The notes under the pieces were generated by a model. That model was not told where the DNA came from. It worked only from the letters and a program-made list of their open reading frames with translations, and did not search any database. A program made the translations under genes and the position numbers. Source: a virus. Taken from it: 21,060 nucleotides of DNA. Of this stretch, positions 1 to 18,584 are shown one piece after another; within the stretch, counting starts at the first letter, position 1, and each line of letters starts with the position of its first letter. The stretch spans positions 1 to 21,060 of the IMG/VR virus record IMGVR_UViG_3300007072_000334; one strand, written 5' to 3'.

Positions 1-2139
1 GTGAGCGCTGCCACGCCAAGGGAGATACGCCAGCCCTTCCGGCCCCGCGCCAGGATGCTCCAGCTGCTGGGCGACGAACTGATCGGGAGTGCACGTCTCG
101 CCGTCTTCGAACTGGTCAAGAACGCTTACGATGCGGATGCGAACGAGGTCGTCGTTCGCCTGGATATTGCCAGAGGGCGAGAGCCTATGATTACCGTGAC
201 CGACGATGGCGAAGGCATGACGCTGGAGGTGCTTCGGTCGGTATGGCTCGTGCCCGGCGACGACTATCGACAGAAGCAGCGGCAGTCGCATCAAAGAACA
301 ACTAGACATCACCGTCTCCCTCTCGGGGAGAAGGGACTCGGTCGCTTTGCTGTTCACAAGCTCGGAAACCGCATCAGCTTGGTGACGCGGGCTCGGAACT
401 CCGATGAGTGCGTGGTGGAAATAGACTGGAACGAACTGATCGCCCAGCCCTATCTGGATGAGGCACCGGTCAGGATAAGTGTCCGCCGCCCGGAGGTATT
501 CACGGGCAGGAGGACCGGAACGCGAATTCAGATCCAGCAATTGCGCACCACCGACTGGTCGCGTGGAGAGGTTCGTCGCCTTCACAATCAGATCACATCC
601 ATCTGCTCGCCGTTTGAGGAGCCGAGCGGATTTCGTGCTGTTTTGGAGGTTCCAGGCCGCGAAAGCTGGATCGCTGATCTGCCGGACGTCACAGAGATTC
701 TGAATAGGGCGATCTGGAAGTTCTCGTTTCGTCTGGACGGTGGGAAGTTCGATTGGACCTATGAATTCCGCAAAGTCCCCGGACTCAAACTGGACCGCAG
801 GGTTGTCGAAAAGTCAGGAGACAGGCTTAAGCTGCCCCCGCAGTCTGGCGATGATCGGATGGAAAAGAAGGTCGTCGCCGACCAGTCAACTACGGAAGGC
901 ATAGGCCCGGTTAGAGGTGAGTTCTACGTCTATGACCGGGACCGCGAGGTCCTCCGGCGCCTAGCCAATGTTCAATTGTTGACCAGCTATCTCGATGACG
1001 CGGGAGGTGTCCGTGTCTACCGGGACGGCATCCGGGTATATAACTACGGCGAGCCCGGTGACGATTGGCTCGGCCTCGACCTGCGTCGTGTGAACATCCC
1101 TACGCGTCGCATCAGCCGCAACATCATTCTGGGTGCGGTTCACGTCTCGCTGGAGACGTCGACAGGTCTCATCGAGAAGACCAATCGAGAGGGCTTCGTT
1201 GAGAACGATGCGTGTGCCAGACTGCGCCGCGTCGTCCTCGGAGCTCTCGCCGCTCTTGAAGAGGAGCGGCAGTTCGACAAGGACCGGATCAGGAAGCTGA
1301 CCGACAAGCCGGACGATCCAACGACCGCCAAGATCGAAAAGCCTATCGAGGAGCTGAGGCACGCGCTCGACAGACGGGGGGTGAGAGACGTGTTCGAGCC
1401 CTACGTGGCAAAGATCGAGCACGACTACCGGAACATGCAGGAAACGCTGCTGTCGGCAGGCATGTCGGGGTTGAACCTAGCGGTCGTATTTCACGAGGTG
1501 GAGCGAGGAGTTCGGGCGCTTCATCAGGTCATCGTGGAAGGTGCGAATCCCGAGGACGCGGCCCGTCAGGCACGGGACCTGATGCATCTTCTCGACGGCT
1601 TCGCGACACTGCTCCGACGTGACAGCAAGAAGCAGCACAGCGCCAGAAAGCTTATCGATGCGGCGCGACGGTTCAACGTTCTTCGGCTCCGCCATCATCG
1701 TGTCCGTCTCGTCTGCCCATTGCTCGACATTGACGACGACGGATTCCAATCCAGGTTCGCGTTCGGACTGGTACTAGGAGCGCTCAACAATCTCATCGAC
1801 AATGCGCTGTATTGGCTCAGGGTCAGATGGCCGGAGGTGCCGCCCGAGAACGAACCGCCCGAGCGGAAGCTCTACATCGGGGTGTCGGACGAGTTCGAAG
1901 CAGGTCCTGCCATCGTCGTCGCAGATAACGGAGCGGGATTTCAAGGAGACGATCCGGAACATCTGGTGCGGCCGTTCTTCACGCGAAAGCCGGATGGCAT
2001 GGGTCTCGGGCTGTATTACGCCAACTTGGCGATGGAGCTGAACGGCGGACAGCTGGCCTTCCCGCAGCCCGCCGAAATCGAGATTCCCAATGGGTTCGAC
2101 GGAGCGGTCATCGCTATGATCTTCAAGGGCGCAAAATGA
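1..2139 (+). CDS. Dual-GHKL ATPase (Hsp90/MutL-like plus histidine-kinase-like), putative sensor of a defence cassette
   Basis: A 712-residue ATP-binding protein with two GHKL modules. The N-terminal one (about residues 15-200) has an N box with E37, N41 and D44, a G1 box DDGEGM at 68-73 and a G2 box GEKGLGR at 109-115, as in Hsp90/MutL/MORC-type ATPases. Residues about 230-400 look like the transducer domain usual after such a module, and about 425-490 is charged and helical. A second, histidine-kinase-type ATPase closes the protein: N box N597/N601, G1 box DNGAG at 642-646, G2 box GMGLGL at 666-671. Just before it, VFHEVERG (H498) resembles the phospho-accepting H-box of histidine kinases. 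No membrane segment or signal peptide is visible, so it is probably cytosolic. The GTG at position 1 is taken as start because the N-terminus matches the expected family start, but it sits on the window edge and upstream sequence is unseen. The stop overlaps the next gene by 4 bases. Kinase activity is inference. Confidence 0.85.
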   Translation: MSAATPREIRQPFRPRARMLQLLGDELIGSARLAVFELVKNAYDADANEVVVRLDIARGREPMITVTDDGEGMTLEVLRSVWLVPGDDYRQKQRQSHQRTTRHHRLPLGEKGLGRFAVHKLGNRISLVTRARNSDECVVEIDWNELIAQPYLDEAPVRISVRRPEVFTGRRTGTRIQIQQLRTTDWSRGEVRRLHNQITSICSPFEEPSGFRAVLEVPGRESWIADLPDVTEILNRAIWKFSFRLDGGKFDWTYEFRKVPGLKLDRRVVEKSGDRLKLPPQSGDDRMEKKVVADQSTTEGIGPVRGEFYVYDRDREVLRRLANVQLLTSYLDDAGGVRVYRDGIRVYNYGEPGDDWLGLDLRRVNIPTRRISRNIILGAVHVSLETSTGLIEKTNREGFVENDACARLRRVVLGALAALEEERQFDKDRIRKLTDKPDDPTTAKIEKPIEELRHALDRRGVRDVFEPYVAKIEHDYRNMQETLLSAGMSGLNLAVVFHEVERGVRALHQVIVEGANPEDAARQARDLMHLLDGFATLLRRDSKKQHSARKLIDAARRFNVLRLRHHRVRLVCPLLDIDDDGFQSRFAFGLVLGALNNLIDNALYWLRVRWPEVPPENEPPERKLYIGVSDEFEAGPAIVVADNGAGFQGDDPEHLVRPFFTRKPDGMGLGLYYANLAMELNGGQLAFPQPAEIEIPNGFDGAVIAMIFKGAK

Positions 2140-3500
2140 TGCTGCCGTCTCCACGAATCATCGCGATAGACGATGAGCCCAAGCATCTCGATGGACTGGC
2201 GAAAAGCCTGAATCAATACGGCGCGGCGTGTCTGCAGATTCATTTTACCGGAGACATCACAGCCATCAAGGCGTGCCCGCATGTGCGAGTGATCTTTGCC
2301 GATCTCCACTTGCAGGAAAGCGGAGCAGCAAGCGATCACGCCCAGCATTTCGGGTTGATCGGGAGCCTGATCGAGGGAACGATCACGCCCTCCGGTCCAT
2401 ATGTGCTGATCCTCTGGACGAAGTATCCTGACCAGGCAAATGCTCTCCAGCAGTTCCTCGAACAGCGCCTCGAAGGTGTGTCGAAGCCTCTCTCTGTCGT
2501 AGCAATCGACAAGATGACCCATCTCTCTCCGGATGGGGACGTCAAGAGCATTGAGGACCTTGTGGCCGCGATCGTCTCAATCATCAGCCGGCAGCCACAA
2601 ATCGCAGCCGTACTCAACTGGGAAGAACGTGTCCTGGGCGCGGCCGCTGACACGGTCTCATCCCTTGTCAAACTCGCAGAATCAGTAGCGGCGCCAGCGG
2701 GTTGCGCGACGGAGCTCGGGCGTCTGCTTGCAAGATTGGCTGTGGAAGGAGTCGGCCAGGAGCATGTGGAACGCGACCGATTTCATGCCGTGAACGAGGC
2801 ATTGCTGCCGATCCTGGCCGATCGTATCGCTGCGCTCAGATCTCGTGATGGCGACGTCGAGACCTGGAAGAACGCATTTTCCAATGAGGATGTGCATGGA
2901 GCCCTTTCGCTAGACGAAGCGTCGAAGCTGAACCGGCTTCTTCATGTCGCGCCGGCGACCGATGCGAATACGGGAGCGGAGCGCGGGGCGGTCATCCCCC
3001 TGCCGGATGCAATGTCAGGTGAAAGGTTTGAGGAGACCTTCAGTCTCTCACCGCAAACGGCCGTCGAGACGCAGTTCTTTGGAAGCGGGTATGTCGCGGG
3101 CGACGCGCAGTTTCGGTGGGTACTGCTCCAGTCGCAGGCCGCGTGCGACTATGCTCAGAGACAACCCGGACCTCTACCGTTTTACCTCGGGCTGGACATG
3201 GAAGTCTCGAAGGCAAAGAAGGGCACCCCGCCAGCGGCGCTGTGGACCAGTCCGCCCTTTGAACTCGAGGGAAAGGTACGATTGTTGCGGGTCAACGCCA
3301 GATTCCAGGTATCACTCCCTCTGAACAGCGCCGAAGCCGTCAAGCCGATCTATCGCCTTCGCGACCAGCTGCTCGCCGACCTGATCAACCATGTCCATAC
3401 CTACAGCGCTCGTCCTGGGATGATCTCCTTTCGCGAGCGGAAGGCAAAACAGCAGGCCGCAGTGGTGCAACCCAAGCCGAACGGTGCGGCCGGACCGTGA
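2136..3500 (+). CDS. Response-regulator receiver protein with large unrecognised C-terminal region
   Basis: 454 residues. The first ~130 form a CheY-like receiver with all key residues: acidic pair D12/D13 (IDDEP), phospho-acceptor D56 (FADLHL), T95 (LWTKYP) and K126 (IDKM). The remaining ~320 residues are mixed and largely helical. They show no helix-turn-helix, GGDEF, HD or nuclease motif that I recognise, so this is not an obvious transcription factor. The start codon lies in the ATGA overlap with the ATPase gene; a second ATG follows immediately, and AAGGG sits about 8 bases upstream. Translational coupling implies that the two proteins act together, with the ATPase's kinase-like C-terminus phosphorylating D56 or otherwise controlling this protein (inference). 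The C-terminal region is the likely output or effector module. The gene ends only 10 bp from the convergent methyltransferase gene. Confidence 0.82.
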   Translation: MMLPSPRIIAIDDEPKHLDGLAKSLNQYGAACLQIHFTGDITAIKACPHVRVIFADLHLQESGAASDHAQHFGLIGSLIEGTITPSGPYVLILWTKYPDQANALQQFLEQRLEGVSKPLSVVAIDKMTHLSPDGDVKSIEDLVAAIVSIISRQPQIAAVLNWEERVLGAAADTVSSLVKLAESVAAPAGCATELGRLLARLAVEGVGQEHVERDRFHAVNEALLPILADRIAALRSRDGDVETWKNAFSNEDVHGALSLDEASKLNRLLHVAPATDANTGAERGAVIPLPDAMSGERFEETFSLSPQTAVETQFFGSGYVAGDAQFRWVLLQSQAACDYAQRQPGPLPFYLGLDMEVSKAKKGTPPAALWTSPPFELEGKVRLLRVNARFQVSLPLNSAEAVKPIYRLRDQLLADLINHVHTYSARPGMISFRERKAKQQAAVVQPKPNGAAGP

Positions 3501-3510
3501 CATTGGCGAG

Positions 3511-4464
3511 CTACTGGCCGCATGCCAGTGCTCTTACTACCGCGTCCATCACGGGTGGACAGACGCCATTTCCGAGCAATCGAATGCGTTCACGACGAGT
3601 ACCCACAGGAAGGCTGAAATCCTCGTCGAACCCCATTGCCCGCTTCAGCTCGGGAACCTGCAACATGCGAATTCTCGGGGCATTCCCGTCGTGCTCCACA
3701 AGGGCGAAGCGGTCTATGGTCGTGATTGTGCGCAGGGGGCGACTGAGAGGCTGCCAACCACCGCTGCCGTCGCTCCCATAATATACAAGCAGGAAGCTGG
3801 CCTCTTCCCCAAGCGCCTGAAAGCCACGTCTGGCCCGCTCAAGAGTGGCATCCGCGCGTCTGCGATCGAAGAGCGGAGAGGTCGTCCAGGTTCCCGCAGG
3901 GTCGAGTATGGCCTTCGCGGACTTGCGCCGGCCTGGGCGCTTGCTCACAGCCCGGGGCGGCTTCTCCTTGCGATCTCCTAGCAGGAAGAGACGTCGTCGT
4001 GTCTGTGCGACGCCGAAATCCGATGCGTCGAGAACATGCTCTTCAAGGTGATAGCCGAGCTCTCGCAGGTCGCGCTTCAGCTCGCCGTAGCGGGACCAGG
4101 GCCGCATATGGATCACGTTCTCAAGCACAAGCCACCTCGGCCTGAGCACACGAGCGTACTCGACGACCAGCATGGCGGTCGCTCGGCTGGCCTCGTCCCG
4201 CGGTGCCGCGCCCTTCGCACAGGTATGGCTCGTGCATTCCGGCGATGCGAGCAGGAGGTCGATCTCGCCGATCTGCTTCTTTAGAGTACAGAGACTGACG
4301 TGCTCAAGACGGCTGGTTATGGCCTGCGCACGGGGGAAGTTTGCGGCGAACGTCTCGGTTGCTATGGCGCACATGTCAATGCCGGCGACAACCTCCACGC
4401 CGGCTGCCCGCGCTCCGGCGCTGCTGCCGCCGGCGCCGCAGAACATGTCAAGCACCCGGATCAC
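3511..4464 (-). CDS. DNA (cytosine-5-)-methyltransferase
   Basis: A 317-residue C5-cytosine methyltransferase that transfers a methyl group from S-adenosylmethionine to cytosine in a specific DNA site. Visible motifs: motif I FCGAGGSS (8-15), motif II acidic D30, motif IV PECTSH with catalytic C77, motif VI ENV (115-117), motif VIII QTRRR (154-158), and motif X GNGVCPPV (298-305). Motif IV is PEC rather than the usual PPC. The target-recognition region between motifs VIII and IX is short (about 170-240). The start is a GTG at 4464, chosen because no ATG, GTG or TTG occurs in frame between it and the Vsr stop codon; the ribosome site is weak (GGGGA). It lies 84 bases downstream of Vsr on the same strand. 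The pairing fits either repair of deaminated 5-methylcytosine or a restriction-modification role. Target sequence unknown. Confidence 0.93.
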   Translation of the reverse strand: MIRVLDMFCGAGGSSAGARAAGVEVVAGIDMCAIATETFAANFPRAQAITSRLEHVSLCTLKKQIGEIDLLLASPECTSHTCAKGAAPRDEASRATAMLVVEYARVLRPRWLVLENVIHMRPWSRYGELKRDLRELGYHLEEHVLDASDFGVAQTRRRLFLLGDRKEKPPRAVSKRPGRRKSAKAILDPAGTWTTSPLFDRRRADATLERARRGFQALGEEASFLLVYYGSDGSGGWQPLSRPLRTITTIDRFALVEHDGNAPRIRMLQVPELKRAMGFDEDFSLPVGTRRERIRLLGNGVCPPVMDAVVRALACGQ

Positions 4465-4548
4465 TTGTCGGAATCCCCAAAGATACCAGAGCCAACCCGG
4501 CCAGGTTACCAGGTTTCGCGGATTTGGCCAGGTCCGATTTTCAGAATC

Positions 4549-5004
4549 TCATGATTTCATGAGGTCATGGATTCGAGGGAACCACCTGCCGGAGCCCTCT
4601 CCCAGGTGTTTGATGAGGCGCCCTCGCACAGCCTCCTCGTCCTGGGTTTCGCACTCCCAGATGACCAGAACCCGCCAGCCGAGCTTCCGAAGCGCCTCCT
4701 CACTGCGGCGATCGCGGGCAATGTTCCTTTCGAATTTTGCGGTCCAGAACGTCGTTCTAGTCTTGGGAATGTAGGCGTATTGGCATCCCCCATGCCGATG
4801 CCAGAAGCATCCGTGGACGAATATCGCCAGACGGTGCCGCGGAAAGACCAGATCAGGACGACCGGGGAGATTCCTGCGGTGCAGGCGGAAACGGAAGCCG
4901 AGCCGGTGAGCAATCCGACGGACAATAAGCTCGGGAGTGGTATCACGTCCCCTGATTTTGGACATGATTTCACTTCGCCGCTTCTTGTCCACAATGTCCG
5001 CCAT
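4549..5004 (-). CDS. vsr: Very short patch repair (Vsr) endonuclease
   Basis: 151 residues, the usual size of Vsr. The N-terminus carries the SKIRGRDTTPE signature, followed by GRPDLVF with the catalytic-type aspartate, then HGCFWHRHGGC (about 84-94), which holds the histidines and cysteine of the Vsr active and zinc site, and WECE near 116. In E. coli, Vsr nicks beside T:G mismatches that arise when 5-methylcytosine deaminates in Dcm sites. Here it precedes its own cytosine methyltransferase and is probably co-transcribed with it. In phage- and plasmid-borne cassettes Vsr-like nucleases may instead act as the cleavage arm of a restriction system; the sequence cannot separate the two roles. 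The 257-bp upstream gap probably holds the promoter, but I see no convincing -35/-10 pair. Confidence 0.94.
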   Translation of the reverse strand: MADIVDKKRRSEIMSKIRGRDTTPELIVRRIAHRLGFRFRLHRRNLPGRPDLVFPRHRLAIFVHGCFWHRHGGCQYAYIPKTRTTFWTAKFERNIARDRRSEEALRKLGWRVLVIWECETQDEEAVRGRLIKHLGEGSGRWFPRIHDLMKS

Positions 5005-5261: not shown

Positions 5262-5492
5262 TCACCGACATGCCCGCATCTGGTCCCGCATGACCTGATA
5301 GTCGGCGAGTATCTGCTCGATGGCCGAGCCGGGTGGCAGGCGGTCGAGCTCGTCGGCCGCCCGGGCGAGGAACTCCTGGCTGTAGGGCACGACCGGCGGA
5401 CAGGGCGCGCCGTCAGAAGGTGCCGTCGCGCAGGCGGCGAGCAAGCTCGTCGCGATCGCGAGGGCGGCGAGCAGCGGCTTCCAGCTGGTCAC
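5262..5492 (-). CDS. Rz1-like outer-membrane lipoprotein (o-spanin)
   Basis: 76 residues with a classic lipoprotein signal: a short basic N-terminus, a hydrophobic stretch and the lipobox LLAAC, with C21 as the lipidation site. The mature peptide of about 56 residues starts with a proline-containing segment (CPPVVPY) and ends in a helical tail. It starts inside the upstream small membrane-protein gene in another frame and runs past its end, sharing 80 bp. That arrangement is typical of Rz/Rz1 spanins, which fuse inner and outer membranes in the last step of lysis of Gram-negative hosts. The assignment rests on lipobox, size, overlap and position. Confidence 0.75.
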   Translation of the reverse strand: MTSWKPLLAALAIATSLLAACATAPSDGAPCPPVVPYSQEFLARAADELDRLPPGSAIEQILADYQVMRDQMRACR

Positions 5493-5652
5493 GTTGCACC
5501 TCGATGGTCTTCCTCATGCGCTCGACGCGCTCGGCATTGCGCCCCGCCTGGCGGGCGCCCAGGAGCACGGCCGCGACGGCGGCCACCGCGGCAAGCCAGC
5601 CGAGGAGGCCGAGGGCGTTGCGGAGGAGCCAGGGCTGGATCAGGGCCCACAT
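5413..5652 (-). CDS. Rz-like inner-membrane spanin (i-spanin)
   Basis: 79 residues: an N-terminal membrane helix (about 10-33, LLGWLAAVAAVAAVLLGA) followed by a charged alpha-helical, coiled-coil-like periplasmic segment, the layout of i-spanins. The start ATG at 5652 is chosen over a longer in-frame ATG at 5736 because it forms a TGATG junction with the stop of the preceding hydrolase-like gene, which implies coupled translation. The extra N-terminal residues of the long form would be non-membrane and would overlap that gene. Its 3' end contains the start of the Rz1-like gene in another frame. The partner lipoprotein supports the call; sequence similarity alone would not. Confidence 0.7.
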   Translation of the reverse strand: MWALIQPWLLRNALGLLGWLAAVAAVAAVLLGARQAGRNAERVERMRKTIEVQRDQLEAAARRPRDRDELARRLRDGTF

Positions 5653-6329
5653 CACCGGAGCCCCTTGCGCCGGTCGTCGATCCGTGCCCAGAGCATCACG
5701 CCGATGCCGACCAGCGTAACGAGGAGCAGCGCCCATTTCGCGGCATCGAGATAGGGCGCGATTCCCACCAGGGCGTCCTGTGCCGGCCCGATCGTCTTCT
5801 GCACCGCTTCGATCGCCGCTGCGCCGAGCGTGCCGGTCGTCGCTGCCTGTCCGCCTCGCACGGTCCGGGTTTCGGCGAGTGGCCGCCCGGGTGGCAGCAC
5901 GCCGGCACGGACCAGCGCCGCGTCGATCTGCGCGTCCGTGTAGGGCTGCTGCCCGTTCTCCACCCGGATCATGGCGATGAGCACCGGTCGCAGATGCTCG
6001 ACGCGGTGGAAGTCGAGCGTCTCATCCGCGCCGAAGCCGCTCTCACGCGCCACGAAGGCGGCATAGGCCTCGGTGTCATTCTCGCTGGGCGGCGCCCAGA
6101 TGCGCACCAGCTTGCGGATGGTGTCCGTGCCGCGGCGGTCGTAGTGGGCGATGATCAGCGCGGCGCCGGCGCGCAGGCCCCAGATGGGACCTTCAAACTG
6201 CTCAAAGGCGCCGTCGGTGTTGCGCTCGGGCTCGATGCGCCCCTGCCAGCGGTTGGCCGGATTCAAGCGGATGTTGAGCGGGTTGTGGTTGCGGATGCCG
6301 CGCGGCAGGGCGCGCGTGGGCGTCATCAT
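5652..6329 (-). CDS. Phage 'structural protein'-type putative cell-wall hydrolase with C-terminal membrane anchor
   Basis: 225 residues. The N-terminal part has the RGIRNHNPLNIR motif, then a tryptophan/glycine segment, GPIWGLRAGA, and WAPPSENDTEAY, the pattern of a phage family often annotated 'structural protein' and suspected to be muralytic. After about residue 150 a linker leads to a membrane segment near 197-216 (WALLLVTLVGIGVMLW) and a basic tail. The ATG at 6329 is preceded by GGGAG (6336-6340) six bases away; a second ATG follows at 6326. It lies between a candidate holin gene and the spanins, so it is the best endolysin candidate here. Catalytic residues cannot be named with confidence. 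A virion-associated role is the alternative. Confidence 0.65.
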   Translation of the reverse strand: MMTPTRALPRGIRNHNPLNIRLNPANRWQGRIEPERNTDGAFEQFEGPIWGLRAGAALIIAHYDRRGTDTIRKLVRIWAPPSENDTEAYAAFVARESGFGADETLDFHRVEHLRPVLIAMIRVENGQQPYTDAQIDAALVRAGVLPPGRPLAETRTVRGGQAATTGTLGAAAIEAVQKTIGPAQDALVGIAPYLDAAKWALLLVTLVGIGVMLWARIDDRRKGLR

Positions 6330-6347
6330 GGGAGGCTCCCTCGAACC

Positions 6348-6365
6348 AAAAAGCCGCTTCGCGGC
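6348..6365 (-). terminator. Intrinsic-terminator-like hairpin before the hydrolase gene
   Basis: On the minus strand GCCGC-GAA-GCGGC is followed by TTTTT (plus-strand A-run 6348-6352). The stem is only 5 bp but fully GC, with a tight loop. It sits between the DUF6127-like gene and the ribosome site of the hydrolase gene and could attenuate lysis-gene transcription. Confidence 0.55.
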
Positions 6366-6405
6366 GGCCGGTTGGACGGTTCGGATCGGGATGGAGATCA
6401 GGACG

Positions 6406-6687
6406 TCAGCCAAGCAGCTTGAGCTTGACCCCCGCCCAGGCGAGAAGCGCGGCGAGTAACACGGTGGTGAGGACACGCACCGTGGTCTGCCAGACGGTGC
6501 GCCGGGCGAGTCGCAGCGCGCCCAAAAGCGAGCGCAGCTCGCGGATGTCCTCGCGCGCCTCGCCGTTATCGACGCCGATGTCCTTGAGGGCCTGCCTCGC
6601 GCCGCGAGCAGCCGCGGCAGCGAGCAGATCCTCGACCTCCGCGCGCGAGAGGCTCACCAGCCTCCCGTCAATGGGTTGGTCGTTCAT
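6406..6687 (-). CDS. DUF6127-like small membrane protein, candidate holin
   Basis: 93 residues with an acidic-helical N-terminus (LSRAEVEDLLAAAAARGAR), a conserved-looking IRELRSLLGALRLARRTVW segment, and one C-terminal membrane helix (about 69-90) ending in a short basic tail. This matches, by eye, the alphaproteobacterial DUF6127 family found in prophage lysis regions. The start at 6687 is chosen over an ATG 21 bases upstream because GGAGG (6695-6699) lies at proper distance. Position before the hydrolase and spanin genes suggests a holin-like role, which is inference. It is bracketed by two terminator-like hairpins. Confidence 0.65.
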   Translation of the reverse strand: MNDQPIDGRLVSLSRAEVEDLLAAAAARGARQALKDIGVDNGEAREDIRELRSLLGALRLARRTVWQTTVRVLTTVLLAALLAWAGVKLKLLG

Positions 6688-6700
6688 GGGAGTCCTCCAG

Positions 6701-6727
6701 AAATACAAAGCCCGCCTTACGGCGGGC
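6701..6727 (-). terminator. Intrinsic terminator downstream of the tail fibre gene
   Basis: On the minus strand GCCCGCC-GTAA-GGCGGGC forms a perfect 7-bp GC stem with a 4-base loop, followed by TTTGTATTT. It lies 29 bp after the fibre gene stop and just before the ribosome site of the next gene. This is the best terminator in the window; it marks the end of the morphogenesis operon or a late attenuation point. Confidence 0.78.
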
Positions 6728-6756
6728 GTGAAGGTCGTCGCCGAGCGCGGCTCGGC

Positions 6757-8037
6757 TCAGATCACCAGCGTCCCGGCCAGCGTGACCGCGATGTCGGCGA
6801 GCGTGGCGTCGGGGCTCGCGGGCGCGATCACCTCGAGGAGGTCGCCCGGTTCGAGGATGGTCTCGCTCGCGGCGATGAAGACGGCGATCGTGGCGCTCGC
6901 CGCGAAGCGGATGGCGCCGACGCTCGCGCCATTGCGCTGGACATCGAGATCCGTCTCCGCGGTGGCCACGACCCCGGCTGTCCCTTGGCTGCCGGCAAGA
7001 TCGACCTGGAGCCGCGAGCGCCGGGCCACGACCGTGCGCAGCAGCACCTCCGAGGCCGCGGGCGCGCCCGCCCTCGCGAAGGCGAAGTCCGCCGGCGGAT
7101 CGGCCGCGTCATCGGTCTCGACCACCTCGATGGCGAACCAGGTGCGCTCCAGGCTCCGGAGCTCACCCGATGCGCCGACGAAGACCGCAAGCTCGAACCA
7201 GTCGCCGGCGACGACCGGGAGGACCGCGCTCGCGATGTTCCGCATCTGATTGCTGTACCCGCTGTCGCCGCGGACGATGAAGGAGCCGCCGCCGACCACG
7301 GCGCCGCCGTTCTTGCGGATCTCGACCAGCTGGCTCGTCGGCGAGGTCTGCCACTCGATGTTGCCGACGAGCCGGACCTTGGTCACACCGGCCGGGATAG
7401 TGAGACGCGTCGGCTGGCCGGCGTCCCAGAGCGCGTCGCTGTCGTAGACGGCGCTCTGCCACGGGATCGCGACATAGGCGCCGGTCGTCGAGACGCTGAA
7501 GTTGGTGCTCCGCCGCACCAGTGCGCCCCGGAACGGCAGCAGCGCCCGCTGGAAGATGCCGACCCCGGCCGGTCCCCACACTGCGCCGTCGAACTGGAGT
7601 ACATCGCCTGGCGCCGCCGCTCCGACTGAGACGTCTGTCAGGTCGTTGAAGGCGCCGGCGCCGCCGCCCACGCCGAAGAGATCGCTGCCATTGCCCTGCA
7701 CCAGCACGGTCGCGCCGGGCACGATGATGACCTCGGCGCCCGAGCCCGTATACTTGGCGCGGACCTCCTGTCCACCGCTGGTCGCGTTGCGGATCGCGAG
7801 CCGGCGGTGGTTTGCCGGCAGCGTCAGGATGCGCGAGGCCGTCAGCGTGCCGGTGAGCACGATGAGCCCGTTGCGATTGGCCTGATCCGCCGTAAGCGTC
7901 ACGTTGGCGTCGGCCATCGCCAGCGACAGCGCCCGGTTCATGGCGTTGTCGAGGGCGTCGAAGGCGTCGTTGATCGTGACCTCCTTCTGGTTCTGCGCGG
8001 CCGCGACGTGGGTGATCGAGAGGTTGGGGCTCGGCAT
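6757..8037 (-). CDS. DUF2793-like tail fibre/collar protein
   Basis: 426 residues. The N-terminus (LSITHVAAAQNQKEVTINDA) resembles the AAQAQKEVT motif at the start of DUF2793 phage proteins. A beta-rich segment follows, then a low-complexity stretch near 130-150 (GVGGGAGAFNDLTDVSVGAA) like the 'DLTDVS' linkers of phage fibres, then C-terminal beta-sandwich-like parts. The start at 8037 forms a TGATG overlap with the tip gene stop. The open frame extends farther upstream, but that part lies inside the tip gene and has arginine-rich shadow composition. It probably decorates or extends the tail tip. Receptor binding is inference. Confidence 0.75.
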   Translation of the reverse strand: MPSPNLSITHVAAAQNQKEVTINDAFDALDNAMNRALSLAMADANVTLTADQANRNGLIVLTGTLTASRILTLPANHRRLAIRNATSGGQEVRAKYTGSGAEVIIVPGATVLVQGNGSDLFGVGGGAGAFNDLTDVSVGAAAPGDVLQFDGAVWGPAGVGIFQRALLPFRGALVRRSTNFSVSTTGAYVAIPWQSAVYDSDALWDAGQPTRLTIPAGVTKVRLVGNIEWQTSPTSQLVEIRKNGGAVVGGGSFIVRGDSGYSNQMRNIASAVLPVVAGDWFELAVFVGASGELRSLERTWFAIEVVETDDAADPPADFAFARAGAPAASEVLLRTVVARRSRLQVDLAGSQGTAGVVATAETDLDVQRNGASVGAIRFAASATIAVFIAASETILEPGDLLEVIAPASPDATLADIAVTLAGTLVI

Positions 8038-11000
8038 CAGGCGACCTCCAGGGTGACGGCGCGCGGGAAGCCGCGGCCGGCAACCGCGCTCAACTGGTAG
8101 ACGACGACGGAGAGAGCGGCCGGCACCGTGCCGAAGTCGGCGAGGATGTCGGCGTTGGCGTAGGTTGCGCTCGGGCTGGTCGAAGCGAGCGTGCGGAGCA
8201 CCGCGCCGCCGGGGCCGTCGAGGATGTCGAGCTCGTAGGCCTCGCTGGCTTCCCCGAGCGGCACCGTGCCGGCGCCGTCCTTGAGTTCGCCGCCGATGCG
8301 CGTGCGGCGGACCCAGGAGAGCGTGATGTTCGCCGGGCTGCCGCTCCTCACCGCCTTCACGTTCCACGGCGCGTAGGGCTTGAGGTCGCGGCCCGTGTGG
8401 CTCTGGACGAGCGTCTCGGCGTCCTCGAACAGCGTGCCAAAGCCCACCGCCCGCCAGGAGCGCGCGAGGCCGAGATCGCCGAGCGAGACGACGAGCGTCT
8501 CGATGTCGTCGGGATCCAGGAGCACGAAGAGCTCGCCAGCCGCGTGGCCGTCGACGAAGACATCCGTGCCCCGGCGGCCGCGCAGGAGGCCGCGAAGCGT
8601 GTAGGAGCCATCCGGGTTCAGCGTGACCTCGCGGAACTGGACGATCTCCGGCTCGCCGTTGGCCTTGAGCACGAGGGCGGCGTTGGCGCCGTTGACCAGC
8701 GCCTCCTGGGTCACGCTCTCCAGGCGATCGCCGCCTGTGGTCATGAACACCGTGAGGCTGTTCTCCTCGTCCGTGCCGAAGGGCGAGCGGGGCGAACCGA
8801 GCGCGTTGGCGGTGGCGCCCCAGGCGGCCTCGCTCAAGGCGCGCCCGATCTGCGCCCATGCGGAGCCATCGGCGCTGCGATAGAGGGCGGCGCCCGGCCA
8901 GCCCGGGCTGCCGAAGCCTGCCATCAGGTAGTAGGCCCTTGAGCCGGCGCCGCCGGCGTCATCGACATCGCGCAGGAGCGGCAGGTCGGGCAGGATCAGC
9001 CGCGTGGCAGCCTCGGCCCCGATCACCTGCGCCGGCCGGCCGGACCCGCCGTCGGCCGCGACGGTGGAGACGTAGGTGGCGGCCGTCTCCGATACACCTT
9101 TGAGCGCCAGAGAGAAGTCGGCGCCGACATCGAGCCGGGTGATCCGGGTGCGGAACGCTGATCCGCTCGGAAAGACCACGTCGACAACGTCGGTCGGATC
9201 GAGGCGCAGCCAGTCAGGCGGCAGCTCGGCCTCATAGGCGCTGCGCTCGATCCAGGCGCTATAGAGGGTCTTGGCGGCGATGCGCTTGGCCGTGGTGGCG
9301 TCGATGGCGAGCGCCAGCTCGAGGCTCGCCTGGTTGCGCGAGTGCATGGTCGCAAGCGGCAGCGAGGCACGCTTCTCGCTCTGTGTCCCCTGCTGGTAGT
9401 CGGCATCGCGGTCCATGTAGACGACGCTGATGCGCTCGGGCAGATCGACCTCCTGCGTGCGACGCTCGCGCCAGCTCTCGCCTGTCTGGCTGTCGAGCGG
9501 CACGAGATATTCGGCCGGGATCGCAGCGACCGGTGCGCGTCCGCGGCTGCGGAAGCGAAGCGTGTCGTCGCTTTCCGCAGCGTCAAAGAAATAGGCCTGC
9601 GCCAGGGGCTCGATGGCGCCGCGCACGGTGGTCTGCCGCCCGATGACATAGCCGGGAACCGTCGCCCCGAGCTCCGCGACGTCGATGTCGGCCAGGCCCA
9701 GCCCGGCCCGGCCGCAGAGGTCGGCGACGATGGCCGACAGCGCCTCGCCCTCGCCGCCGCCGCGATTGAGAAAGAGCCGCACCCACCCACTGCTGCTGCG
9801 CACCAGATGCGTGTCGGTGACGGCATCATAAACCTGAGCACCGCCTTCGCTGACCGCACCCGGCCAGATCTCATTGAGAACAAGAGCGCCCGTGGCGGTG
9901 TCCAGCTGGATGACGCGCGTGCCCCGCATCAGCGTCCAGCGCTGCCCCTTGAGCCGACTCTGGCCGAAGAACGGACCCTCGTAGTTGATCTGGCTCGGGA
10001 CGGCGGTCTTCCAGACGATGCCGGCATCCGCCCGCCACTTGAGCGTATAGATCGTCCCCGCCGATCCGCCGTTCGAGATCCGGGCCTGGAAGATCACGCT
10101 GTCGTCGGTGGCGTCGTAGGTGAGACCGCCGGCGGTGTCATAGAAGCCGGTGGCTCCGGCCTCGATCTCGGCGGGGGTGAAGCTCGCCACCTTCTCGAAG
10201 CTGACGCCCAGCGACTGGCCGGTGAGCGCATCGTACTGGGCGAGCGCCGAGACCCGGATGCGGTAGAGTCCGAGGCTCGCATGGTTGGTCCCCGTCCCGC
10301 TGCCGAGGAGCCAGCCCTCGCCGAAGCCTTCGCCGACCGCCCCGCCGATGGCGCCGCGCACGCGCGGCTCGGTCACGGTCTGGCCGGCACCCCACACGTA
10401 GCCCATGCTGTCGGCGCGCAGGAGCCCGATGTCGTCGAAGAGCGAGCCTGTGAGCAGGAAGTCGATGCGGCCGGAGGGGCCATAGGCCGAGACCATGCCC
10501 ATCCACGTGGTCGCGACGAAACGGAGGGTGGAATTCGAGAGCCCGTTGCTCGTCGAACCGAAGCGCCCGACCTCCTTCAGCGCATTTGGCTCGATGCGCA
10601 GGATCGGACGCGAGTTGCTCGACCCGGTGACAACGTAGAGATGGCCGTCCTCGCCGCAGAACAGCGTGGCGGGGAAGTTGTTGGGCGTGAGCTTGGTCAC
10701 GTCCGTCATCCGCGCCTGTCGGTCCTCCTTCATGGTGCGCAGGCTGAAGCGATGGAGGCCGGCGGCATCGGCGTTGCTGCTCGACGAGACGAAGTAGCCG
10801 TAGCCGCGCCGCCAATCGACCGCGAGCTCGTCGATCTGGTATGAGCCGAAGTAGCCGCCCTCGCCCGTGGTGATGAAGTCGAGGAGCTGGTAGGGCTGCT
10901 GGGCGGCGCGGCGGAAGGTGATCTCAGCCGTGATGTTGGGGATGCGGTTGCCGTAGTCGGCGAGCGCCAGGTCCTCGAACACGATGAGGCAGAGCCTGCG

Positions 11001-11543
11001 ATGGGCCGGCGCGCGCCCGGCGCCCACATGGGCCTCGATCAGGGGATCGGGCAGCTGGGTCTCGCTGCCAGGATAGAAGCGGAACCGCAGGTTGGGCTTG
11101 GCGACGTCCGGGCTCGCGCCGGTCTTGTCGTAGATGAGCTTGCCGTCGGCCCAGATGCGGAGCACGTCCTCGGCCAGCCCCTCGCCGAAGCTGAGCGCAA
11201 ACGAGGCGAAGTAGGAGTAGCTGATCGAGGTCTGGGTGCTGCGTCCGCCGCCGCCCTTGCCGCCCGACCTCGTGCGGGTCACGTTCTGCTGCTCGCGGAT
11301 TCCCGACGACCAGATCATGTTGCCGGCCATGCGCAGCGTGCCGTAACCGATGGGGATGGACGCCCCATAGGCAGAGGACGAGACAGTGAGGTCGCCGAGC
11401 CGCGGTCCCTCGGTGGTGACGTTCTGGCCCTTGGCCGGAAACAGCAGGTTGCCGACCACCGCGCCGACCAGCCAGCCGGCCTGCCAGCCGACACCGATGG
11501 CGGAGCCGAGCGCGGCCCCGCCCACTGCAACGAGGATGGCCAT
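8037..11543 (-). CDS. Phage tail tip/host-specificity protein (gpJ/GTA megatron-like)
   Basis: 1168 residues, the largest gene here. The N-terminus is glycine-rich and hydrophobic (about 1-35), then comes the GPRLGDLTVSSSAYGASIPIG segment typical of alphaproteobacterial tail tip proteins, with a hub-like domain to about 220. Residues about 230-590 contain repeated beta-strand and loop units (HLYVVTGSSNSRPILRIE, YVWGAG, DDSVIFQARISN) suggesting a beta-propeller. About 595-760 matches the conserved tail-hub region (LADLCGRAGL-like, with RGAIEPLAQAYFF and RFRSRG). Near 1055-1130 is an FN3-like domain (APWNVKAVRSG, ITLSWVRR). It follows the NlpC/P60 gene by 3 bases. It should close the tube and contact the cell surface. 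The domain limits are by eye. Confidence 0.88.
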   Translation of the reverse strand: MAILVAVGGAALGSAIGVGWQAGWLVGAVVGNLLFPAKGQNVTTEGPRLGDLTVSSSAYGASIPIGYGTLRMAGNMIWSSGIREQQNVTRTRSGGKGGGGRSTQTSISYSYFASFALSFGEGLAEDVLRIWADGKLIYDKTGASPDVAKPNLRFRFYPGSETQLPDPLIEAHVGAGRAPAHRRLCLIVFEDLALADYGNRIPNITAEITFRRAAQQPYQLLDFITTGEGGYFGSYQIDELAVDWRRGYGYFVSSSSNADAAGLHRFSLRTMKEDRQARMTDVTKLTPNNFPATLFCGEDGHLYVVTGSSNSRPILRIEPNALKEVGRFGSTSNGLSNSTLRFVATTWMGMVSAYGPSGRIDFLLTGSLFDDIGLLRADSMGYVWGAGQTVTEPRVRGAIGGAVGEGFGEGWLLGSGTGTNHASLGLYRIRVSALAQYDALTGQSLGVSFEKVASFTPAEIEAGATGFYDTAGGLTYDATDDSVIFQARISNGGSAGTIYTLKWRADAGIVWKTAVPSQINYEGPFFGQSRLKGQRWTLMRGTRVIQLDTATGALVLNEIWPGAVSEGGAQVYDAVTDTHLVRSSSGWVRLFLNRGGGEGEALSAIVADLCGRAGLGLADIDVAELGATVPGYVIGRQTTVRGAIEPLAQAYFFDAAESDDTLRFRSRGRAPVAAIPAEYLVPLDSQTGESWRERRTQEVDLPERISVVYMDRDADYQQGTQSEKRASLPLATMHSRNQASLELALAIDATTAKRIAAKTLYSAWIERSAYEAELPPDWLRLDPTDVVDVVFPSGSAFRTRITRLDVGADFSLALKGVSETAATYVSTVAADGGSGRPAQVIGAEAATRLILPDLPLLRDVDDAGGAGSRAYYLMAGFGSPGWPGAALYRSADGSAWAQIGRALSEAAWGATANALGSPRSPFGTDEENSLTVFMTTGGDRLESVTQEALVNGANAALVLKANGEPEIVQFREVTLNPDGSYTLRGLLRGRRGTDVFVDGHAAGELFVLLDPDDIETLVVSLGDLGLARSWRAVGFGTLFEDAETLVQSHTGRDLKPYAPWNVKAVRSGSPANITLSWVRRTRIGGELKDGAGTVPLGEASEAYELDILDGPGGAVLRTLASTSPSATYANADILADFGTVPAALSVVVYQLSAVAGRGFPRAVTLEVA

Positions 11544-11546
11544 GGA

Positions 11547-11981
11547 TCAGATGACGGGCTGGCGGAACCGAAAGGCGAACTTGATCTTGGCGAGCCACTC
11601 ACCGGCGTAGGGCTCCTCGATCACCTTGCGCCGGAGCGCATGGGCGTGGATGAGATGCGGATGGCTCAGCCGCTCGGTGAGGAAGCCGCAGTGGCAGGGA
11701 TAGGCCTGGTCAGCGAAGACGAGGATGTCGCCGGGCCTGGCATCGGGAATGGCGATGCCGTCCATATTGGTGCGGAAGTGCTCGACGAAGCCCTGACCCT
11801 GTGCGCGGCGGCCATAGGTGGTGTGGTCGTAGTCCGAGAGATCGAGGGCGCGCGCGACCTCGACCACGAGGCCGACGCAGTCGATGCCGGCGCGGCTCCG
11901 TCCCTGGTGCCGCCAGGGCACGCCGAGCCAGCTCCGCGCCTCCGCGACGATCTGCTCGGGCGTGATTATCTCAGCGGGCAT
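11547..11981 (-). CDS. NlpC/P60 family tail peptidase (GTA gp14-like)
   Basis: 144 residues with the NlpC/P60 papain-like fold markers: nucleophile C35 in GIDCVGL, H97 in PCHCGF, and a third polar residue around H112 in LIHAHA. ARPGDILVF before the histidine is characteristic. Such tail-tip peptidases cut peptidoglycan cross-links during DNA entry and may be cleaved from or bound to the hub. The start overlaps the upstream hub gene by 11 bases and the stop lies 3 bases before the tip gene. Gene position (hub, peptidase, tip) matches the Rhodobacter gene transfer agent. Confidence 0.9.
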   Translation of the reverse strand: MPAEIITPEQIVAEARSWLGVPWRHQGRSRAGIDCVGLVVEVARALDLSDYDHTTYGRRAQGQGFVEHFRTNMDGIAIPDARPGDILVFADQAYPCHCGFLTERLSHPHLIHAHALRRKVIEEPYAGEWLAKIKFAFRFRQPVI

Positions 11982-13551
11982 CGGGGTAGCTCATGATGGC
12001 GTCCTGGCCCGGCACGTAGGGCTCGCCGCGGAAGTTGAGGACGTTGGCAAAGCGCGCGATGCAGGTGTCGAGGCGCTTGTCGCAGCCGGGATGGATGCGG
12101 AAGAGATCGCCGACCCGGATCGCATAGCCCATGGGGAGGAAGAGCTCGATCTGGCCCGTGGCCTGTGTCCAGGCCTTGACCTCGATCGAGCGGCCGGTGC
12201 TCGGGCCGCTCTCCCAAGTGAGCACGCCGCCTGCGAACCAGCCGTCGGCCGCGCGCGGCTCGTCGATGGAGGCGGTCAAGACAGCACGGTCCGCCACATC
12301 CGCGACGAGCCCTGCACGGCTCCACGCCTCCATCGCCTCGAACACGGCGCTGCCATCCGTGGTCTGCTGGCCGACGCCCGTGTCGTAGGCGGGCTGGACC
12401 GCAGCGGTGGTGCCCGCCGCCACGCAGCGGTAGATCCGGTTCTCGTAGACGGCGGCGGTGCCGACGCCGGTGGTGGTGTCGGTGAAGTAGCCGGAAATCC
12501 CGTCGAGCGCGGCGTTGCAGACCGTGCCGCTCACGCGCGTCCCGTTGAAGATCACCCGCAGCTGCCGCGCGCCAGCCGGCACCAGGGCGTCAGCGATTTG
12601 GCGGAGCGTCCAGACGCCCGTCATCGCCTCGTTGCGAGTGTCGAGCGGCGTCGCGAGCACCGCGCCCGCATCGTCCAAGAGCTCGACGCGCAGCCGGCCC
12701 TGGTCGACCGTGTTGCCGCCGCCATTGGCCCGCCAGGCGCCAACGGTGAGGCGGTAGCCGCCGCTCTCGGTCGTGGTGGCATCGAGCACGCCTGCGAGAT
12801 CGACGGTCTGGCGGACCTCGAAGCTGGCGACATTGCCGCCTTCGAGGAAGTGCGTTCCCGTCTTCGGCCCGAGCGCGCCGCTCGAGGTCTTGGCCGACGC
12901 CGAGCCCGACGCCAGAGTCCAGCCTGATAGGCTCCCAGCGTCGAAGCCCGGATTCACGAAAGGGATGCCGATCGTCGTGAGCGCCGAGGACGTCCGGACA
13001 CGGACGACGTCGCCCACCGCATAGGCGGCCGAGCGCTGGATCTCCGGCGGATGGATCGGCACCTTGCAACGGTGGTCGCCGAGATCGGCGCGGCATTCGG
13101 GGCTGTAGAGCTCGCCGATGCGCTGGGAGAGCGCCTGGGTCATGCCCCTGAGCTCGGTGCGGAAGACGCCCTGCTCGGTCAGCACCACCTCGCCGAACCA
13201 GCCGCGGCGCATGCGCAAGCTGCCCATCGACGGGTCGGCCCAGTTGACGAGGAAGATGCGTACCTCGGCCTGATCGAACAGCCCGGCGCGCAGCTCCTCC
13301 TCGGTGATCGCTTGCGCGTCGAACACGCCCTCGACGTCGAGGTTGTCGACGCCGAGACTCGCGTCATTGGCGATCGCCGTGCGCGAGTAGCCCGAGCTCG
13401 CCTTGTAGACATCGCCCTCGAAGACGAGGTCGCGGTCGTGATCGGTGAAGAAGAACTCCCGCCCGTCGAGCCGGGTGATGCGCCAGCATGTGGCAAGCGT
13501 CGTCACCGGCCCGGCGAGATGGGCCGCGAGCGCTGCGGAAACCGACTTCAT
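11971..13551 (-). CDS. DUF2163/BR0599-type tail hub protein (lambda gpL-like) with large insertion
   Basis: 526 residues, well above the roughly 290 usual for this family. Residues 1-165 match the DUF2163 N-terminus (WRITRLDGREFFFTDHDRD; GYSRTAIA; LYSPECRADLGDHRC). Residues about 405-526 match the BR0599 C-terminal part (HPGCDKRLDTC, then NFRGEPYVPG). C153/C162 (C-x8-C) and C490/C497 (C-x6-C) have the spacing I recall for the iron-sulfur cysteines of lambda gpL. Between them sits an insertion: 195-358 starts NPGFDAGSLSGW and reads like a jelly-roll carbohydrate-binding module, followed by VYENRIYRCVAAGTT-type beta repeats. It overlaps its neighbours by 4 and 11 bases. It should link tail tube and tip. 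Confidence 0.88.
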   Translation of the reverse strand: MKSVSAALAAHLAGPVTTLATCWRITRLDGREFFFTDHDRDLVFEGDVYKASSGYSRTAIANDASLGVDNLDVEGVFDAQAITEEELRAGLFDQAEVRIFLVNWADPSMGSLRMRRGWFGEVVLTEQGVFRTELRGMTQALSQRIGELYSPECRADLGDHRCKVPIHPPEIQRSAAYAVGDVVRVRTSSALTTIGIPFVNPGFDAGSLSGWTLASGSASAKTSSGALGPKTGTHFLEGGNVASFEVRQTVDLAGVLDATTTESGGYRLTVGAWRANGGGNTVDQGRLRVELLDDAGAVLATPLDTRNEAMTGVWTLRQIADALVPAGARQLRVIFNGTRVSGTVCNAALDGISGYFTDTTTGVGTAAVYENRIYRCVAAGTTAAVQPAYDTGVGQQTTDGSAVFEAMEAWSRAGLVADVADRAVLTASIDEPRAADGWFAGGVLTWESGPSTGRSIEVKAWTQATGQIELFLPMGYAIRVGDLFRIHPGCDKRLDTCIARFANVLNFRGEPYVPGQDAIMSYPDAR

Positions 13552-14150
13552 GGTCGGATCTCGACGATGATGATCTGCCCCCAGCTGCCGAGCTGGTAGG
13601 TCTCGATCGTGATGTCCATCTGGTCGCTGTCGAAGCGGGCCGGCACATCGAACTCGAAGTCCGCCGTGACCTGCACGCCCGCTCCCGGCGCGGTCGTGAA
13701 AGTCACGATGCCGGTCGCCGTGTTCACGCTCCAGCCCGAGGCCGCCTCGACGCCGTCGCGATAGACCTTCACCGTGCCGGCGACGGGCTTGGTGATGAGC
13801 CGCGTCTCGATCTCGCCGCCGCTCGCATAGCGCTTGACCAGCTGGAAGGTCTTGGTCGTGCCATCGCCGACCCCGATGACCTGCGCGAAGGCCTGGAAGT
13901 CGGTCCAGTCCTTGAAGCGGAAGCCGTAGGCGCGGCCCTTCCGCGCGCGGAAGAAGGCGATGAGTTCGGCCACCTGCTCACGCTTCTTGAGGCCATGAGC
14001 AACGTTCCACTTGCCCCGTGCGTCCGCCCAGTTGGCGTTGCGCCGCTCGTGCCCGGAGACCGTGGTGACGACGGTGGTCGAGTAGCCCGGCCCGCCCGAT
14101 GCGCCATAGGAGATGTCGGGCGGGAACTGCACTTCGTGAAATCCGCTCAT
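13548..14150 (-). CDS. DUF2460 distal tail protein (GTA gp12-like)
   Basis: 200 residues, the normal family length. Hallmarks: FHEVQFPPDISYGASGGP at the start, then the SGHERRNANW segment, FFRARKGRAYGFRFKDW (about 66-82) and a beta-rich C-terminus with VTFTTAPGAGVQVTADFEFDVP. This protein forms the ring joining the tail tube to the hub. It starts 12 bases after the tape measure stop and its own stop overlaps the hub gene by ATGA. Confidence 0.93.
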   Translation of the reverse strand: MSGFHEVQFPPDISYGASGGPGYSTTVVTTVSGHERRNANWADARGKWNVAHGLKKREQVAELIAFFRARKGRAYGFRFKDWTDFQAFAQVIGVGDGTTKTFQLVKRYASGGEIETRLITKPVAGTVKVYRDGVEAASGWSVNTATGIVTFTTAPGAGVQVTADFEFDVPARFDSDQMDITIETYQLGSWGQIIIVEIRP

Positions 14151-14162
14151 CGCCCGTGCTCG

Positions 14163-18578: not shown

Positions 18579-18584
18579 GGGGGA

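What the first reader, a model, noticed from the sequence alone, without database searches (positions are those of the whole stretch)
1..5004. Candidate signal-controlled defence cassette: dual-GHKL ATPase and receiver protein facing a cytosine methyltransferase and Vsr nuclease
Seen: an ATGA-coupled ATPase/receiver pair on the plus strand converges, with only 10 bp between stops, on a methyltransferase/Vsr pair on the minus strand, all at the end of a prophage late region. Known: MutL/MORC-type GHKL ATPases occur in restriction-modification-like operons (described by Iyer, Abhiman and Aravind, recalled from memory), and two-component-like proteins are used by some anti-phage systems such as Detocs. 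Inference: DNA modification marks self, the ATPase senses invading DNA or its state, and phosphotransfer or ATP-driven clamping controls the receiver protein and possibly Vsr cleavage. I do not recognise this exact four-gene set as a named system. More members could lie before position 1.
Basis: partly seen in the sequence, partly recalled or inferred. Interest (0 to 1): 0.78.

Follow-up and report, generated by a model that had tools for sequence, protein, structure and literature searches.

The report
Methylation-linked MORC kinase cassette
Next to a phage's tail and lysis genes sits a four-gene set, found again in many kinds of bacteria, that joins a DNA-marking enzyme and a DNA-nicking enzyme to a signalling pair; it looks like a self/non-self DNA checkpoint, but what it does has still to be tested.

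Summary
The four genes are real, look intact and are as described: a MORC-type ATPase fused to a histidine-kinase core, a receiver protein with an unnamed output domain, a C5 cytosine methyltransferase and a Vsr endonuclease. The grouping is not chance. Of 48 bacterial loci chosen only by kinase similarity with at least 9 kb on both sides, 48 have the receiver, 45 a C5 methyltransferase within 5 kb and 31 a Vsr. Starting instead from the methyltransferase, 6 of 6 loci have Vsr and 5 of 6 a kinase-receiver pair, four of these of a distant family. The association is already in print: a computational 2021 paper (PMC8011034) reports kinase-like/receiver-like pairs beside C5 methyltransferases and Vsr. 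The window's proteins belong to a branch that the Pfam models from that work do not detect. New here: the kinase's front half folds like MORC3; receiver families seem to share one output domain; the pair is passed between different R-M systems; some sets have no recognised restriction enzyme; and the set lies just past the conserved part of a phage late block. Defence is likely but unproven.

The parts
1..2139 (+). MORC-type ATPase fused to a histidine-kinase core (712 aa, GTG start at the contig edge)
   Evidence: HATPase_c_3 at residues 33-147 and HATPase_c at 594-687; model pLDDT 83.8; best fold match MORC3 ATPase-CW over residues 14-427 (Z 23.8), rear residues 489-712 match sensor kinases (ZraS Z 18.7, rmsd 7.5; ThkA catalytic domain Z 18.7, rmsd 2.6)
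1492..1494 (+). His498 codon, predicted phosphoacceptor of the kinase (FHE motif)
   Evidence: His in 53 of 53 aligned kinases, following Glu in 52 of 53; the model is weak here (pLDDT about 55)
2136..3500 (+). receiver protein (454 aa): REC domain, helical linker, unnamed C-terminal output domain
   Evidence: model pLDDT 93.7; REC fold in residues 4-159, best Z 10.1; Foldseek best E 1.6e-3, a response regulator; no Pfam family
2301..2303 (+). Asp56 codon, predicted phosphorylation site of the receiver
   Evidence: Asp in 71 of 71 receivers; D12 71/71, D13 70/71, K126 70/71
3144..3149 (+). Cys337-Asp338 of the output domain
   Evidence: invariant in 71 of 71; the place is aligned by hhalign to a second receiver family (E 1.7e-5, probability 78.5), where Cys is in 4 of 4 and Asp in 3 of 4
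3511..4464 (-). C5 cytosine DNA methyltransferase (317 aa)
   Evidence: PF00145 6.5e-36; TIGR00675 110 bits, cut-off 100.65; best PADLOC model DrmMII 1.8e-92
4549..5004 (-). Vsr endonuclease (151 aa)
   Evidence: PF03852 5.6e-29; TIGR00632 2e-43; aligned over residues 2-128 to E. coli Vsr 1cw0, 8.8e-33
5262..21060 (-). phage lysis/tail/head block (context, not part of the cassette)
   Evidence: PHROG matches of six scanned ORFs; 38 viral loci with a related tail protein; shared DNA ends at about 5265

Best explanation
The four genes form one mobile, restriction-like module, most likely carried as cargo at the end of a phage late block. The methyltransferase marks self DNA with 5-methylcytosine. 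Vsr acts at or near the methylated sites (classically by nicking T:G mismatches that arise from 5mC; recalled). The kinase uses its MORC-type ATP-driven clamp to read the state of DNA (unmethylated, half-methylated, nicked or otherwise foreign) and changes the activity of its kinase core. It passes phosphate from His498 to Asp56 of the receiver, whose C-terminal output domain then carries out or licenses the response against non-self DNA. Shown here: the parts, their intact motifs, predicted folds and conserved linkage. Inferred: DNA sensing, phosphotransfer, what the output domain does, and that the purpose is defence.
For: Linkage chosen without looking at neighbours: of 48 full bacterial loci, receiver 48, C5 methyltransferase within 5 kb 45, Vsr 31; 48 methyltransferase ORFs lie at 0-5 kb against 2 at 5-9 kb, and 31 Vsr against 1. 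Reciprocal sample from the methyltransferase: Vsr 6 of 6, kinase-receiver pair 5 of 6. The pair keeps C5 methyltransferases while partners change: at least 13 changes of methyltransferase class and 21 of effector class on the kinase tree (no shuffled control was printed). The checked ATP-site residues of both GHKL domains and His498 are invariant in 53 kinases; Asp12, Asp56, Cys337 and Asp338 in 71 receivers. MORC3 is the best fold match of the front half, histidine kinases match the rear. At the same phage site L119 carries HsdR, HsdS-NADAR and PRTase-CE genes. In L009 the set, in the window's order, is followed by folD, gcvT and gcvP, and no nuclease other than Vsr was found, though its upstream genes stay unidentified. 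Vsr-type nucleases are predicted effectors of other defence systems (passages of PMC11090510 and PMC12458937).
Against: No experiment shows defence. The output domain matches no named Pfam family or solved structure by sequence, so the executing activity is unknown. In 13 of 48 full loci the set sits with an AspBHI-, EcoRII- or MvaI-type restriction enzyme that could do the cutting alone. No Vsr lies within 5 kb in 17 of 48, so it is not essential to the pair. One of six reciprocal loci (L238) has methyltransferase and Vsr without the pair. Gene 1 touches the contig edge, so the window may lack a fifth gene, and a host flank beside a prophage is not excluded. At the same phage site other relatives carry a UvrD-like helicase (L136), a Hypoth_Ymh protein (L107) or nothing recognised (L117).
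Confidence: 0.5

Rival explanations
1. The kinase-receiver pair is a regulator: it senses methylation or DNA damage and adjusts expression or activity of a neighbouring R-M system, without itself acting on foreign DNA.
For: Proposed as speculation in PMC8011034 (discussion). The pair sits beside R-M systems with an AspBHI-, EcoRII- or MvaI-type enzyme in 13 of 48 full loci and is exchanged between them.
Against: No DNA-binding domain was recognised in the receiver. 29 of 48 full loci have none of the effector types that I had seeds for, so often there is no obvious R-M nuclease to regulate; but some of these 29 hold other nuclease genes (for example a Uma2 gene in L011).
Confidence: 0.25
2. 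The kinase features are secondary; the protein works as a MORC/MutL-like DNA clamp or looping motor that recruits Vsr or another nuclease, with the receiver as a structural partner (paraMORC model of Iyer et al. 2008).
For: Best fold match of the front half is MORC3 (Z 23.8), with Hsp90-type ATPases at about 21 and MutL at 18.8; Iyer et al. link MORCs and paraMORCs to R-M genes and Vsr and propose DNA looping (passages).
Against: Invariance of His498, of the kinase ATP-site residues and of receiver Asp56 and Asp12 speaks for real phosphotransfer.
Confidence: 0.15
3. A methylation upkeep cassette: the phage methylates its DNA to evade host restriction, Vsr repairs 5mC deamination, and the pair monitors repair.
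For: The set lies next to a phage block; Vsr resembles E. coli Vsr over residues 2-128.
Against: 80 relatives come from bacterial genome records of 15 named phyla (whether inside prophages was not tested), and only 2 of 13 viral relatives have Vsr.
Confidence: 0.1

Closest known systems
Response_reg_2 / HEF_HK two-component-like elements (PF19192/PF19191; PMC8011034, 2021)
   Same: Adjacent MORC-kinase and receiver genes beside a C5 methyltransferase and often Vsr. The two PF19192 loci found here show MT-HK-RR (L242) and MT-HK-RR-Vsr (L243); L106, found by similarity to one of them, shows a kinase fragment at the record start, a receiver and Vsr. Kinase cores align at probability 99.2.
   Different: The window's proteins and the diverse relatives scanned do not match PF19192 or PF19191. 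Receiver 454 aa against 555 and 617, kinase 712 aa against 993 and 1003.
MORC/paraMORC GHKL ATPases of R-M operons (PMC2292703, 2008)
   Same: MORC-type GHKL plus S5 ATPase next to cytosine methyltransferases and Vsr (passages).
   Different: The window's protein adds a phosphoacceptor helix and kinase catalytic domain, and a receiver partner; the passages I saw name no receiver.
Shedu with GHKL domain, VcSduA / paraMORC3 (PMC12137116, 2025; passages)
   Same: GHKL ATPase domain needed for anti-phage defence.
   Different: VcSduA carries its own nuclease domain; no nuclease domain was detected in the window's kinase.
Detocs (recalled from memory)
   Same: Two-component signalling used for phage defence.
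   Different: No methyltransferase or Vsr as recalled; not compared by sequence here.

Membership tests
Response_reg_2/HEF_HK system | receiver matches PF19192 | tested here: not met
   P0002 not matched at E<=1; 8 diverse relatives not matched at E<=0.1; 0 of 9 records and genomes searched (the window and eight genomes of relatives) matched at E<=1
Response_reg_2/HEF_HK system | kinase matches PF19191 (DHp domain) | tested here: not met
   no PF19191 for P0001 at E<=1 or 2 relatives at E<=0.1; the model does match the kinases beside two PF19192 receivers
Response_reg_2/HEF_HK system | N-terminal HATPase_c_3 and C-terminal HATPase_c flanking a DHp-like helix with His-Glu | tested here: met
   profile match of the DHp plus catalytic part to HEF_HK kinases, E 3.7e-19
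Response_reg_2/HEF_HK system | genomic linkage with C5 methyltransferase and Vsr | tested here: met
Response_reg_2/HEF_HK system | receiver output domain homologous | tested here: inconclusive
   direct comparison weak (E 0.062 and 0.03); second family to window family E 1.7e-5, probability 78.5; second family to PF19192 proteins E 0.018, probability 2.6
MORC/paraMORC ATPases | GHKL plus S5 ATPase module | tested here: met
   MORC3 Z 23.8 over 303 aligned residues; MORC2, MORC4 and MutL also listed
Type II restriction-modification | cognate restriction endonuclease in the set | tested here: inconclusive
   none recognised among the four proteins (gene 1 matches only the GHKL part of GHKL-bearing restriction enzymes) and no hit to AspBHI/EcoRII/MvaI/Z1/Hsd/HNH seeds in the window, but the contig is cut at position 1
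Vsr endonucleases | Vsr family model and alignment to E. coli Vsr | tested here: met
   TIGR00632 147.5 bits, cut-off 97.85; 1cw0 8.8e-33
DISARM (DrmMII hit) | helicase and partner genes besides the methyltransferase | tested here: inconclusive
   only the methyltransferase matches a Drm model among the four proteins scanned; the other ORFs of the window were not scanned with PADLOC
Detocs | Detocs gene trio | not tested
   no Detocs model is among the PADLOC hits shown for the four proteins, but whether that 2023 library holds one was not checked

The most novel reading that the evidence does not exclude
A phosphorelay-coupled class of restriction: a MORC clamp reads DNA methylation or damage and, by His-Asp phosphotransfer, switches on a dedicated, still unnamed output domain shared by three receiver families. 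The C5 methyltransferase then serves as the self mark, without a canonical restriction enzyme.
Probability: 0.27. Interest if true: 0.8.

Novelty: new variant of a known kind. Interest (0 to 1): 0.5.

Why it matters
Eukaryotic MORC proteins are tied to silencing of methylated DNA (abstract starts listed), and their bacterial roots in R-M operons have been discussed since 2008; my searches listed no bench test of a bacterial MORC-kinase of this type. A widespread bacterial unit that joins a MORC clamp to a kinase, and keeps company with a cytosine methyltransferase whatever the rest of the R-M system, would make two questions directly testable: what MORC clamps sense on DNA, and whether restriction can be run by phosphorelay. 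The output domain is a concrete target with invariant residues.

Tried and rejected
Chance neighbourhood: rejected by the near/far counts and the reciprocal sample.

PemK/MazF-like output domain: I suspected an SH3-like barrel from the motif. Profile comparisons with four PemK proteins gave no support, Pfam gave no recurrent family over 68 C-terminal domains and solved structures none. One weak Foldseek row named PemK-like (E 0.18) is not evidence.

Direct homology of the receivers with PF19192 proteins: not significant with the two PF19192 sequences at hand. PF19192 is rare: 2 of 185 genomes of one class, 1 of 4 of an order, the same genome.

Single-protein viral scans with P0001 and P0002 found nothing; alignment queries worked. 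Nucleotide search of phage records with the phage part found none. The head-protein scan (80 loci kept) and the distant plasmid search were not used further. The Marinomonas kinase/response-regulator paper concerns a LuxR-type regulator (passages). Whether DefensePredictor's HATPase/REC prediction is this family could not be told from a figure legend.

Neighbour ORFs were chosen by length, and in GC-rich loci some are antisense artefacts (for example six upstream ORFs of L009, none with a Pfam match); the tblastn check covers only effector types that I had seeds for, and a Pfam scan of 52 neighbour ORFs from seven loci also shows Uma2, HsdR and HsdM domains, so 'none' does not mean no nuclease.
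Full report
What is there. The window is one 21,060-base IMG/VR contig. From 5262 to the end it holds a phage lysis, tail and head block on the minus strand (six ORFs scanned).

Proteins. Gene 1 (712 aa) has HATPase_c_3 near the front and HATPase_c at the rear. Its model (pLDDT 83.8) matches the MORC3 ATPase-CW module best, over residues 14-427 (Z 23.8; Hsp90/TRAP1, MORC4, MORC2 and MutL follow), and sensor histidine kinases over residues 489-712 (ZraS Z 18.7, rmsd 7.5; ThkA catalytic domain Z 18.7, rmsd 2.6). The helix around His498 is modelled with low confidence (block means 53-72). In an alignment of 53 kinases (the window and 52 of the 76 length-filtered kinases listed), the checked ATP-site residues of both GHKL domains and His498 are invariant. 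Gene 2 (454 aa) has no Pfam family. Its model (pLDDT 93.7) has a receiver fold in residues 4-159 (best Z 10.1; Foldseek best E 1.6e-3; best sequence match to a solved receiver E 0.012), a helical linker and an alpha/beta C-terminal domain. In 71 receivers (the window and 70 of the 81 listed) Asp12, Asp56, Gly284, Cys337 and Asp338 are invariant, Asp13 and Lys126 are in 70 of 71, and position 95 is Thr or Ser in 64 of 71. Gene 3 is a C5 methyltransferase and gene 4 a Vsr that aligns with E. coli Vsr 1cw0.

Is the grouping real? I took bacterial loci by kinase similarity alone (the best 80 of 395 relatives) and 13 viral loci, and scanned them with profiles built from a few seeds. Of the 80, 77 have the receiver directly downstream, 69 a C5 methyltransferase within 5 kb and 48 a Vsr. 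Of the 48 with at least 9 kb on both sides, the figures are 48, 45 and 31. Within those 48, 48 methyltransferase ORFs lie at 0-5 kb and 2 at 5-9 kb; for Vsr 31 and 1. Some loci are close kin (for example L061 and L062), so these are not independent events. The 80 record titles place them in 15 named phyla plus two unplaced, 52 being Pseudomonadota; many are metagenome bins. Of the 13 viral loci 9 have the receiver, 12 the methyltransferase and 2 Vsr; the four without a receiver (L096-L099) are distant GHKL relatives of 23-26% identity. The core order of the window occurs in 8 other loci (in L048 with a restriction-enzyme gene in between), and many other layouts occur. Of seven plasmid records with a receiver relative I viewed four: Burkholderia glumae, Rhizobium gallicum and two Agrobacterium; each has an annotated Vsr and C5 methyltransferase within about 10 kb of the kinase. 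A gut scaffold, L006, has methyltransferase, kinase and receiver in a row.

Reciprocal test. Starting from the methyltransferase (E <= 1e-40) in 385 genomes of one class and 369 of another, 2 and 4 genomes match. All six loci have Vsr close by. Five of six have a kinase-receiver pair: L231 of the window's family, and L230, L239, L240 and L241 of a more distant family (kinase 206-233 bits). In these four the receiver, of about 370 aa, was not found by my receiver profile; I recognised it by its receiver motifs and position, by alignment, and by the profile match below; a search of solved structures with one of them gave only a response regulator at E 1. L239 also has an AspBHI-like fragment and an HsdM-like stretch. 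L238 has methyltransferase and Vsr only. L232, from G437, has methyltransferase, kinase and receiver without Vsr.

A shared output domain. The window-type receivers align with the second family over the C-terminal 111 columns, including the Cys-Asp position (Cys in 4 of 4 of the second family, Asp in 3 of 4) and the terminal Arg-x-Gly (hhalign probability 78.5, E 1.7e-5). The second family aligns at the same motif with the two PF19192 proteins, but weakly (E 0.018, probability 2.6). I read this as one output domain in three receiver families; the third link is tentative. The domain has no sequence match in Pfam or solved structures.

Partners change. A tree of 93 kinases (quick method, SH-aLRT support only) needs at least 13 changes of methyltransferase class (like the window's, 30 rows; other, 54; 9 not counted) and 21 of effector class (the labels take any methyltransferase or effector in the locus, and no shuffled control was printed). 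Over all loci from L002 to L099, seen near the pair are AspBHI/Mrr-type enzymes (10 loci), EcoRII-type (8), MvaI/BcnI-type (6, and L041 by tblastn) and Z1 proteins (8); representatives were named by Pfam, the rest by similarity. Of 48 full loci, 13 have an AspBHI-, EcoRII- or MvaI-type enzyme, 19 any seeded effector and 29 none of them; some of the 29 hold other nuclease genes, for example a Uma2 gene in L011. L007, among the nearest kinases (77-78% identity), has an AspBHI-type enzyme next to the receiver at its contig end, so the window could be a form that lost or never had one, or whose enzyme lies beyond position 1. L009, with the window's layout, is followed by folD, gcvT and gcvP, and no nuclease other than Vsr was found; its upstream genes stay unidentified. 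L008, L010 and L056 hold the cassette, and L060 remnants of it, beside type I R-M genes.

Phage site. 38 viral loci share the tail protein, 35 of them at 72-91% identity over their best segment and three at 40-44%. DNA similarity to the window was seen in 36; in ten it ends between 5265 and 5299 and in none goes lower, six of these ten having more than 1 kb of further sequence. At that place L119 has HsdR, HsdS-NADAR and PRTase-CE genes by Pfam; L129 has ORFs of nearly the same sequence (seen, not scanned); L136 has a UvrD-like helicase, L107 a Hypoth_Ymh protein and L117 nothing recognised. L131 has a methyltransferase and Vsr some 4 kb after its own shared DNA ends. This makes cargo the likeliest reading of genes 1-4, though a host flank beside a prophage is not excluded.

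What is known. Iyer et al. 2008 (PMC2292703, passages) link MORC and paraMORC ATPases to R-M genes and Vsr. Bellieny-Rabelo et al. 2021 (PMC8011034; abstract and main text to the start of the discussion, Vsr passages, discussion; methods not read) describe kinase-like and receiver-like pairs with 91.6% linkage, C5 methyltransferases, and Vsr in 20 genera, most often directly downstream of the receiver-like gene. They offer control of R-M as speculation. The Pfam models from that work do not detect the window's family. Azotobacter, which they list for Vsr, carries the window-type set in L030, and that genome has no PF19192 match, so their orthologous group may include this family; I could not check their tables. 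In the listings of nine literature searches I saw no functional test of this set; most listed papers were not opened, and the library is open-access only. PMC13092281 (passages) lists HATPase and REC in a figure of predicted, unvalidated defence systems. PMC11090510 and PMC12458937 (passages) give Vsr-type nucleases as predicted effectors of other defence systems.

Verdict. This branch, its MORC-plus-kinase fold, the probable shared output domain, the partner exchange and the phage site are additions. Defence by methylation-coupled phosphorelay is the best but unproven explanation.

Noticed in passing
L119:12488-19431 and L129:16562-23493: Two phage relatives carry HsdR, HsdS-NADAR and PRTase-CE genes (Pfam scan of L119; L129 similar by its ORFs) right after the conserved late block: a variable cargo site in this phage group.
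   Followed up: partly
L131:17499-18979: A related phage contig ends in a C5 methyltransferase and a Vsr, in another orientation, some 4 kb beyond the DNA it shares with the window.
   Followed up: no
L230, L239, L240, L241: A second, distant MORC-kinase/receiver family (receivers of about 370 aa) sits beside the same type of methyltransferase and Vsr.
   Followed up: partly
L015:2759-6860: A second kinase-like gene (196 bits) with a small neighbour that reads like a receiver (my impression, no search) lies about 4.5 kb from the main pair on the opposite strand.
   Followed up: no
L012, L014, L060, L084: Receiver or kinase genes appear shortened or split into several ORFs, either decayed or through sequencing error.
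   Followed up: no
L010:13429-14861: Kinase and Vsr are close to the window's (Vsr 70%), but the methyltransferase is only 42% identical, as if swapped.
   Followed up: partly
L002:4492-4737: On the Burkholderia glumae plasmid a small ORF that reads like a ribbon-helix-helix protein (my impression, no search) overlaps the kinase start; small ORFs also precede the kinase on two other plasmids (L003, L005).
   Followed up: no
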